From: Dipylidium caninum
Lineage: Eukaryota; Platyhelminthes; Cestoda; Cyclophyllidea; Dipylidiidae
Length of the DNA stretch: 64,000 nt
Direction: 5' to 3'
Assembly: GCA_017562135.1 (NCBI GenBank)
Contig: QEYB01000026.1
Coordinates: forward strand, 62,001 to 126,000
Shown here: positions 55,440 through 60,938 of the stretch, piece by piece
Layout of the letters: each line of letters begins with the position of its first letter
How positions within the stretch are numbered: the first letter of the stretch is position 1
The notes under the pieces: generated by a model
What the model was told of the DNA's origin: nothing
The model's database searches: none
Seen by the model: the letters and a program-made list of their open reading frames with translations, nothing else
Program-made: the position numbers and the translations under genes

Positions 55440-56161
55440 ATGAGTTTCTCCCCAGTTTTTATGCGTGTTCGTAGTGTCTTAAAGACGAATCTCATATTTC
55501 ACACACCTGGCCGGTAGTTTACAGTTTCTAATTGGATTTAATTCGGATAGTTGTGGAAGCTCTGTAAATTCGTCAAAAAATTATTATAAAATTCTTGATC
55601 TCAAATCCACTGCTACGCTTCAGGAAGTCAAGGAGGCCTATATATCACTTTCTAAAAAGGTAAATCTATATATATTCTAGACTTTTCGGATATTAGTATC
55701 ACCCTGATGCAACCGGCGACAATGCTGAACTACGCTCGAAGTTTATCGAAATAAATGAAGCGTTTGCCGTATTAGGTAGAGAATCTACTCGCAGAGAATA
55801 CGATTTTCAACGTAAAATTAATGCCTTCAGGGAAATCGAGTCGGGCTACAAAATGGAGTATCCGGAACTCGAGAATCTCGACCCCAACCTTGCTGCTGCC
55901 TTCGAGGAAGAAATGCGACATCGATGGAACGCAAGGTTGCTCGACTGGATGAGAGGCCAGGGAGAATATGAACTCGAGAGAGGGCATCACGTGAAACCTT
56001 TGCCGGCCATTTTACCCCAGTCCTATGTGTTTAAGGAGTATGCAAAACACGATACCCTCCTCCTTTTGGGATTTGTCGCATTTGCCCTTGGGATGGTTTA
56101 CGTTTACCACACTATGTACGCCACTTCTCTTTGCGACTTCTCAGCCATAGGAATAACTTAG
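55440..56161 (+). CDS. DNAJC4: Membrane-anchored DnaJ (Hsp40) protein, DNAJC4-like
   Basis: J-domain co-chaperone that should stimulate an Hsp70 at a membrane. Certain coding is 55525-55659 and 55697-56161, joined by a 37-bp phase-0 intron. The J domain reads NYYKILDLKSTATLQEVKEA, then the catalytic HPD in YHPDATGDNAELRSKF, and EINEAFAVLGRESTRREYD. The pattern HPD..GN..L.S.F.E..EA..VL.RE..RR.YD is closest to vertebrate DNAJC4 as I remember it. A hydrophobic helix near the C-terminus (DTLLLLGFVAFALGMVYVYH) suits a single membrane anchor. The first exon is uncertain: ATG 55440 (MSFSPVFMRVRS) has phase-0 GT sites at 55455, 55467 and 55476 that could splice to the acceptor at 55524. Its arginines and serines would suit a mitochondrial presequence. 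The gene converges on MRPL37. Confidence 0.75.
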
Positions 56162-59681: not shown

Positions 59682-59687
59682 TTTATT
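59682..59687 (-). promoter_or_regulatory. Poly(A) signal for the distal cytochrome b5 isoform
   Basis: AATAAA on the minus strand about 83 bp after the stop of the distal terminal exon. No canonical hexamer was seen after the proximal terminal exon. Confidence 0.6.
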
Positions 59688-59769: not shown

Positions 59770-59842
59770 TTACTTAAGGTACCAATAAGCTGTCACTGTC
59801 ACAGCCGCTACGGCAATCGGAAGAAGAGCACCGGTCCAACCA
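59770..59842 (-). other. Distal alternative terminal exon of cytochrome b5 (ER-type tail)
   Basis: Acceptor TTTTCTACCCAG at 59843-59844, reading phase 2, encoding a helix with the proline of the microsomal cytochrome b5 anchor (LLPIAVAAV, compare human VIPAISAVAVALM) and ending YWYLK before TAA. It is followed by AATAAA at 59687-59682. Confidence 0.8.
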
Positions 59843-60938
59843 CTGGGTAGAAAAGAAGAGTTAAACATATCTCAAGAGAGATTACTTAAGACATAATTCG
59901 ACAAGAAAATTGAACTCATAAATAGTTGTTTTTATAACAGCCACAGGGACGTCCCATATAGCAGCATCAGATTAAATCGGAAGCAGACCAAGACAACAAA
60001 TAAAGTTGAAATTTAGAATCATGGATAAGGCAATGACAAAACATGCAGTACCAAACACGAAGCAGTCATATTTAAGGTACCCAGAAAAACAGGCAGTGTT
60101 AAGGTGTGTTTTAAACTAAATTTGATATACCAAAAATGTGGTAGCATATGAATCCATGGAATATAGCGTCTTGGAGCTATTGCAAAACAAACCCAATAAA
60201 CTTAAAATAGAACCCAGCACAATGAATGTAAAAATAAAAGAGGCACGATAGACAATTTGATTTGGTATTCAAATGTGAGTGGATGACGAGGAGAAATGAT
60301 AACTTCAACGACGCCGAATGAAACGCTTCGTCGCAAATGCACCAGCTAATAGCACACAAACAGTAACTGCGAAATTGATCCATCTGTAGCTAGAAAAAAA
60401 GAATGACAAATGGTTCGGAATCCATCCTCCGGTTTATTTTGACCGTCCCCGTTTTTTTAACAAAACGAGACATTCAAGTTGATTGACCCAGATGGAGATG
60501 ATAAACTTACGCAAAGCTTGCTTGTCTGTCTCTCGAGTAGTTGGAAGAAAATTTGAATTTGGACTCTTTATCTTTCTACAAGGTCCCGTAGGCAATGAAC
60601 ATAAACATACATCATCCACGACTCCAATAAGATAATTTTCCATTTGCCTGCGCGCGCCATCCGAGTGACCAACATCTTCGAAGGCTTCTGTAGCATATCC
60701 ACCAGCATTTTCAAGGATCACACAGTCGCCTCCCGGATGCTAACAAAATTAATAGTATGAGTAATTGCACGATATTATAACGAAAGACTTCCGGCAGCAA
60801 AAAAACACTATTGCTCACCTCAGCTAGGAAACCTGAAACGTCATACACTTTGTTATGGATGACAATCCAGCAGTCATTTTCAGTGCAGTGTTCCTTAACT
60901 TCCTCCAGAGTAAACACCTTAGTCTGGTCCTTCGACAT
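59770..60938 (-). CDS. CYB5: Tail-anchored cytochrome b5 with two alternative terminal exons
   Basis: Heme protein that donates electrons to lipid desaturases, P450s and other membrane enzymes from the cytosolic face. Common exons: 60938-60819 ([36 protein letters not shown]), 60739-60611 ([26 protein letters not shown]; both heme-ligand histidines present) and 60575-60511 (charged linker [21 protein letters not shown]), which ends in phase 2 at GC|GTAAGT. Two terminal exons then fit the same phase. Proximal 60389-60305: [19 protein letters not shown], then TKRFIRRR and stop. Distal 59842-59770: [20 protein letters not shown], then YLK and stop. Each supplies one transmembrane helix. The intron between common exons 2 and 3 is 35 bp. 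The heme domain is certain; use of both tails is inference. Confidence 0.9.
60305..60389 (-). other. Proximal alternative terminal exon of cytochrome b5 (basic tail)
   Basis: Acceptor TTTTTTTCTAG at 60390-60391, reading phase 2, encoding one hydrophobic helix and the very basic end KRFIRRR before TGA. A second acceptor 6 nt further in (CTACAG) is also in phase and would drop two residues (YR). Positive charge after the tail anchor is the known determinant that sends tail-anchored proteins to the mitochondrial outer membrane. Confidence 0.8.

What the first reader, a model, noticed from the sequence alone, without database searches (positions are those of the whole stretch)
59770..60575. One cytochrome b5 locus with two interchangeable tail-anchor exons, predicted to switch ER and mitochondrial targeting
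Seen directly: the third common exon ends in phase 2 at GCGTAAGT. Two downstream exons each begin in the matching phase after a pyrimidine-rich AG, encode a single hydrophobic helix and then stop. The near one ends KRFIRRR, the far one YWYLK. Known: C-terminal basic charge directs tail-anchored proteins, including CYB5B, to the mitochondrial outer membrane, whereas less basic tails with the microsomal b5 anchor go to the ER; vertebrates use two genes for this. Inference: this animal makes both forms by alternative last exons. I do not know of a description of this arrangement.
Basis: partly seen in the sequence, partly recalled or inferred. Interest (0 to 1): 0.82.

Follow-up and report, generated by a model that had tools for sequence, protein, structure and literature searches.

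The report
Tapeworm cytochrome b5 with two tails
A tapeworm cytochrome b5 gene carries, after its shared part, two possible last exons that each encode a different membrane anchor, one weakly and one strongly basic, so one gene might supply two cell membranes, but only one of the two tails is seen in related worms and no RNA evidence was available.

Summary
In detail: on the minus strand a three-exon cytochrome b5 core (60938-60511) ends in phase 2 at GC|GTAAGT, and two downstream acceptors open, in phase, a hydrophobic helix plus stop: near exon 60389-60305 (tail KRFIRRR, net +5) and far exon 59842-59770 (tail K, net +1). By its nearest relatives the genome is a tapeworm's. The far tail is the conserved anchor: 5 of 6 named tapeworm entries listed carry it, 0 of 6 carry the near tail, and one stops at exon 3. 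The near exon is unlikely by chance (about 2% of composition-matched random introns hold any such helix exon, about 0.1% one with tail charge +2 or more), but its use is unproven and its conservation could not be tested in DNA. If used, the mitochondrial outer membrane is the best guess: published charge rules point there or to peroxisomes, and a published survey found no peroxins in four tapeworms. I found no other canonical cytochrome b5 gene in the genome. Alternative tail anchors are known for SLMAP, VAMP-1 and FALDH; my searches listed none for cytochrome b5, though one unnamed protein pair shows the same layout. A testable candidate at about even odds.

The parts
60819..60938 (-). CYB5 coding exon 1 (ATG at 60938)
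   Evidence: Pfam PF00173 on the spliced protein
60611..60739 (-). CYB5 coding exon 2 with the HPGG and GHS histidines (heme ligands, recalled)
   Evidence: H41 and H65 invariant in 8 rows, two of them this gene's own forms
60511..60575 (-). CYB5 coding exon 3, linker, ends in phase 2
   Evidence: linker KFSSNYS present in 5 of the 6 tapeworm entries, (P0010 lacks the region)
60505..60510 (-). 5' splice site GTAAGT; if unspliced, the frame reads A then stop (GCG TAA), a possible soluble form
   Evidence: M. corti entry P0005 ends at the same point
60433..60438 (-). AATAAA inside intron 3, upstream of the near exon; could end an unspliced, soluble form
60305..60389 (-). near tail exon: (A)[27 protein letters not shown] stop, tail charge +5; second in-frame acceptor at 60383
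59770..59842 (-). far tail exon: (A)[23 protein letters not shown] stop, tail charge +1; conserved canonical anchor
59682..59687 (-). AATAAA poly(A) signal after the far exon; no AATAAA or ATTAAA between near and far exons (variants TATAAA at 59936, TTTAAA at 60115)

Best explanation
This is the only canonical tail-anchored cytochrome b5 gene that I found in a tapeworm genome. Its core is spliced by default to the far exon, the conserved anchor that puts b5 on the ER (possibly partly on mitochondria). A nearer acceptor, 121 nt after the donor, can instead join the core to an alternative helix ending KRFIRRR; that mRNA would stop there and probably run on to the same poly(A) site at 59687. With a short helix, basic residues on both sides and net charge +5, and with no peroxisomes to compete, the near form would be inserted into the mitochondrial outer membrane. 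Shown: gene structure, phases, charges, conservation of the far tail. Inferred: that the near exon is spliced in vivo, and where either product goes.
For: Exact structure. Near exon improbable by chance, and the strong acceptors in intron 3 all lead into the two helix exons. No second canonical b5 gene: the other b5-domain hits in the genome are on C751, 2 kb from an FAD_binding_6 match (reductase-fused type), and on C196 (PGRMC-like by my reading, not tested). Charge rules: mammalian b5 tail at -1 is ER only, +1 also mitochondria, +2 mitochondria only (PMC4592070, passage); a very basic tail behind a hydrophobic helix goes to peroxisomes, and to mitochondria in PEX19-deficient cells (PMC5450235, passages); no peroxins were found in the four tapeworm genomes named in a survey (PMC4690255, passages). 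An unnamed protein pair, P0016/P0019, shares 105 residues and then has two different helices with tail charges +2 and -1: the same layout elsewhere.
Against: 0 of 6 named tapeworm entries listed have the near tail, and the search with residues 86-132 had 1 candidate and no hit at E up to 10. No RNA data. No canonical poly(A) signal between near and far exon. No mARC (MOSC, PF03473) match in the genome, though 7 of 14 control genomes rang, so the best-known mitochondrial partner of b5 (recalled) seems to be missing (the search is blind to introns). The near helix is rather hydrophobic (mean 1.7 to 2.25 by the stretch taken), while above 1.75 marks ER anchors in yeast. My PEX19 and PEX3 searches are uninformative (no control rang). 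Chance criteria were set after the fact.
Confidence: 0.42

Rival explanations
1. The near exon is a chance or decaying cryptic exon inside intron 3; only the far tail is made. T-rich intron DNA readily spells hydrophobic stretches.
Against: With the basic tail the chance falls to 6 and 3 of 5000, and 0 of 5000 at +3 or more; real DNA gives 1 of 742; the strong acceptors of the intron all fit helix exons.
Confidence: 0.4
2. The near exon is used, but its product is not mitochondrial: it stays on the ER because its helix is hydrophobic, or is degraded, and the choice of tail tunes amount, not place.
For: [quoted passage not shown] the SLMAP tails sort by hydrophobicity, not by flanking charge (PMC2712456, abstract).
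Against: In PEX19-deficient cells a hydrophobic helix with a very basic tail went to mitochondria with no ER signal (PMC5450235, passages); mammalian b5 follows charge (PMC4592070, passage).
Confidence: 0.12
3. The variable step is membrane-bound versus soluble: leaving intron 3 unspliced gives a stop at once (GCG TAA), as the donor site itself supplies it, and an AATAAA at 60438 inside the intron could end that RNA.
For: Read-through gives ...RQASFA stop; AATAAA at 60438 lies between this stop and the near exon; the Mesocestoides corti entry P0005 ends at exactly this place; mammals have a soluble b5 (recalled).
Against: The M. corti entry may just be a truncated gene model; a phase-2 intron whose exon is followed by GTAA always gives this stop, so it is no evidence of use; one AATAAA in 668 nt is not rare.
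Confidence: 0.06

Closest known systems
SLMAP TA1/TA2 alternative tail anchors
   Same: One gene, two alternatively spliced tail anchors; both reach the ER and TA2 also mitochondria (PMC2712456, abstract seen)
   Different: Different protein; sorting there depends on hydrophobicity, not flanking charge; experimentally shown
VAMP-1A/VAMP-1B splice isoforms
   Same: A splice isoform of a tail-anchored protein carries a mitochondrial signal in which C-terminal positive charge matters (Isenmann 1998: title in reference lists and a citing passage only; the paper is not held)
   Different: A SNARE; as I recall only the very end changes, not the whole anchor
FALDH (ALDH3A2) ER/peroxisome isoforms
   Same: Splicing swaps a low-charge tail (-1.1) for a very basic one (+9.1) and so changes organelle (PMC5450235, passages)
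   Different: Only the tail changes, not the helix; goes to peroxisomes, which tapeworms are reported to lack
Vertebrate CYB5A and CYB5B
   Same: Same heme domain; for b5, tail charge decides between ER and mitochondria (PMC4592070, passage)
   Different: Two genes, not one locus (recalled)
P0016/P0019 cytochrome b5 pair, unnamed source
   Same: 105 identical residues, then two different helices, tail charges +2 and -1
   Different: Organism and gene structure unknown; could be two genes or two assemblies

Membership tests
Cytochrome b5 (tail-anchored, microsomal/OM type) | Cyt-b5 heme-binding domain | tested here: met
   PF00173 2.8e-26, 91.8 bits over cut-off 23.7
Cytochrome b5 (tail-anchored, microsomal/OM type) | Two axial histidines (HPGG and GHS; recalled) | tested here: met
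   H41 and H65 invariant in 8 aligned rows, two of them this gene's own forms
Cytochrome b5 (tail-anchored, microsomal/OM type) | Single C-terminal helix with short tail | tested here: met
   Both products, by hydropathy
Gene with alternative tail-anchor exons (SLMAP-like) | Two tail exons in the same phase after one donor, each with helix and stop | tested here: met
Gene with alternative tail-anchor exons (SLMAP-like) | Both junctions used in RNA | not testable with these tools
   No RNA reads on hand
Gene with alternative tail-anchor exons (SLMAP-like) | Both exons conserved in relatives | tested here: inconclusive
   Far: 5 of 6 tapeworm entries. Near: 0 of 6, no database hit; no DNA of relatives found
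Mitochondrial outer membrane tail anchor | Net basic tail directly after the helix | tested here: met
   Near tail +5, R before the helix; far tail +1
Mitochondrial outer membrane tail anchor | Moderate helix hydrophobicity | tested here: inconclusive
   Near helix mean 1.7 (19 aa) to 2.25 (15 aa) by the stretch taken; above 1.75 is ER-like in yeast, but mammals show no clear line
Mitochondrial outer membrane tail anchor | Observed on mitochondria | not testable with these tools
   Needs imaging or fractionation

The most novel reading that the evidence does not exclude
In tapeworms, which lost peroxisomes and appear here to have a single canonical cytochrome b5 gene, choice between two last exons replaces the vertebrate CYB5A/CYB5B gene pair and distributes b5 between ER and mitochondria; swapping whole b5 anchors by splicing is an older animal device (P0016/P0019, and forms ending in CaaX-like motifs near the same junction).
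Probability: 0.2. Interest if true: 0.65.

Novelty: new variant of a known kind. Interest (0 to 1): 0.42.

Why it matters
If real, one gene does by splicing what vertebrates do with two genes, in an animal group reported to lack peroxisomes, where tail-anchor sorting is reduced to ER versus mitochondria. It would be a compact natural test of which features of a tail (charge or helix) decide its membrane, and would explain how a worm with one b5 gene serves both.

Tried and rejected
Near exon as a repeat or copied piece: intron 3 with both its parts has one match in the genome, itself (the search skips very common words), and the near tail matched one place. A paralogous gene supplying the other tail: none found. 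Codon-usage test: no power. GC of the near exon (45.9%) is above the flanking intron (34-38%), but 28.7% of 2000 Markov imitations reach that somewhere, so I do not count it. A 144-codon frame given for the near-tail match is not one open frame: the translation shows a stop within intron 3, upstream of the near exon. PEX19 and PEX3 searches gave nothing, but no control genome rang either, so they do not show absence; I rely on PMC4690255 instead. Genome contigs: 45 pattern matches, no relative. Literature: searches (titles and starts of abstracts seen; one search listed 20 of 196 papers); none of the listings showed a cytochrome b5 gene with two tail-anchor exons, nor did the passages seen of a review on dual targeting (PMC11653698); the library is open-licence only. 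Structure prediction was not run, as it would not tell the membrane.

Full report
What is there. On the minus strand at 60938-59770 lies a cytochrome b5 gene. Exons 1-3 (120, 129 and 65 nt; introns 79 and 35 nt) encode the heme domain and linker; exon 3 ends in phase 2 at GC|GTAAGT. PF00173 matches with 91.8 bits, and the best of 52 solved sequences is a cytochrome b5 (2m33, 5.4e-26). Two acceptors follow. At 60389 the near exon adds [27 protein letters not shown] and a stop; at 59842 the far exon adds [23 protein letters not shown] and a stop. The coordinates and sequences in the finding are right.

Whose it is. The top five matches are tapeworm proteins (Echinococcus multilocularis 69%, Hymenolepis weldensis 66%, H. 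microstoma 65%, Taenia crassiceps 68%, Mesocestoides corti 65%), with T. asiatica tenth. The genome (106 Mb in 920 contigs) is thus a tapeworm's, by inference; the species was not established.

Far tail. Of six named tapeworm entries among the 120 listed of 601 hits, five end in the far type (GWTG or SWTG ... AYFxxK) and the sixth (M. corti, P0005) stops where exon 3 ends. The T. asiatica entry lacks the end of exon 2 and all of exon 3, probably a gene-model fault. The far exon is the canonical anchor.

Near tail. None of the six has it. The near isoform as query listed no further named tapeworm entry among 120 of 590 hits, and residues 86-132 alone gave one candidate and no hit at E up to 10. 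Gene models often show one form per gene, so this is weak evidence against; I found no DNA of relatives (genome contigs: 45 pattern matches, none a relative).

Is it chance? With criteria set after seeing the exon, 1 of 742 real stretches of 668 nt held a comparable exon and 0 of 742 one with net charge +2 or more; only 25 of the 742 were T-rich like the intron. In composition-matched imitations the figures were 107 of 5000 and 85 of 5000 (any), 6 and 3 of 5000 (+2 or more), 0 and 0 of 5000 (+3 or more). Intron 3 has three acceptors with 12 or more pyrimidines out of 15: 60389, 60383 and 59842, each leading into a helix exon. A codon-usage score and the exon's GC content did not help.

How it may work. 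Intron 3 can be removed to either acceptor. The near form would stop 27 codons on and, as no AATAAA or ATTAAA lies between near and far exon, probably share the poly(A) signal at 59687; it would then be a choice of acceptor, not of poly(A) site. Two tandem acceptors 6 nt apart give the same near tail less two residues. The near tail has net charge +5; the far tail has +1, as do the five other tapeworm far tails. For mammalian b5, a tail of -1 goes to the ER, +1 also to mitochondria, +2 to mitochondria alone (PMC4592070, passage). Very basic tails go to peroxisomes, and to mitochondria without PEX19 (PMC5450235, passages). No peroxins were found in the four tapeworms named in a survey (PMC4690255, passages). 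So the near form points to mitochondria, while the far form may be ER or shared. Against this, the near helix is rather hydrophobic, which can favour the ER. A third product is open too: unspliced RNA would stop at once and meets an AATAAA at 60438, giving a soluble form like the M. corti entry.

Context. I found no other canonical b5 gene in the genome: the remaining b5-domain matches are on C751, 2 kb from an FAD_binding_6 match (reductase-fused type), and on C196. Desaturase-family matches, possible ER partners, are on two contigs; MOSC (mARC), the known mitochondrial partner (recalled), has no match. These searches ignore introns and can miss split genes.

Known or new. Alternative tail anchors are known for SLMAP (abstract), VAMP-1 (title and a citing passage) and FALDH (passages). 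For cytochrome b5 my searches listed no such gene. Among 139 listed database proteins one pair, P0016/P0019, shares 105 residues up to the anchor and then differs in the whole helix, with tail charges +2 and -1, so anchor swapping at this junction may be more widespread. Verdict: observation confirmed, interpretation about even, a new variant of a known kind.

Noticed in passing
database proteins P0016 and P0019: Two unnamed cytochrome b5 sequences identical over 105 residues, then two wholly different tail anchors (tail charges +2 and -1); by my reading the only such pair among 139 listed proteins.
   Followed up: partly
database proteins P0050, P0123, P0042: Cytochrome b5 forms without a helix that end in CaaX-like motifs (CVLQ, CVIS, CSLS) at about the same junction (Oedothorax, Lineus isoform X2, unnamed): possibly prenylated alternative ends. 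4 of 139 end in Cxxx; the fourth, P0018, has it after a helix.
   Followed up: partly
window 60505-60510 and 60433-60438, and P0005: The donor GTAAGT in phase 2 supplies a stop at once if intron 3 is kept, with an AATAAA 72 nt on; the M. corti entry ends at that stop.
   Followed up: partly
L001 / G000:C751:530116-532516: Second b5-domain gene with an FAD_binding_6 match 2 kb on, probably a b5/b5-reductase fusion.
   Followed up: no
window 59393-56248, minus strand: Next gene downstream, same strand; its first open frame begins about 0.3 kb after the b5 poly(A) signal; family not identified (two Pfam tries failed on my coordinates).
   Followed up: partly
window about 55640-55860, plus strand: By eye, a DnaJ-like stretch with an HPD motif read on the plus strand (sequence); no family search made.
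   Followed up: no
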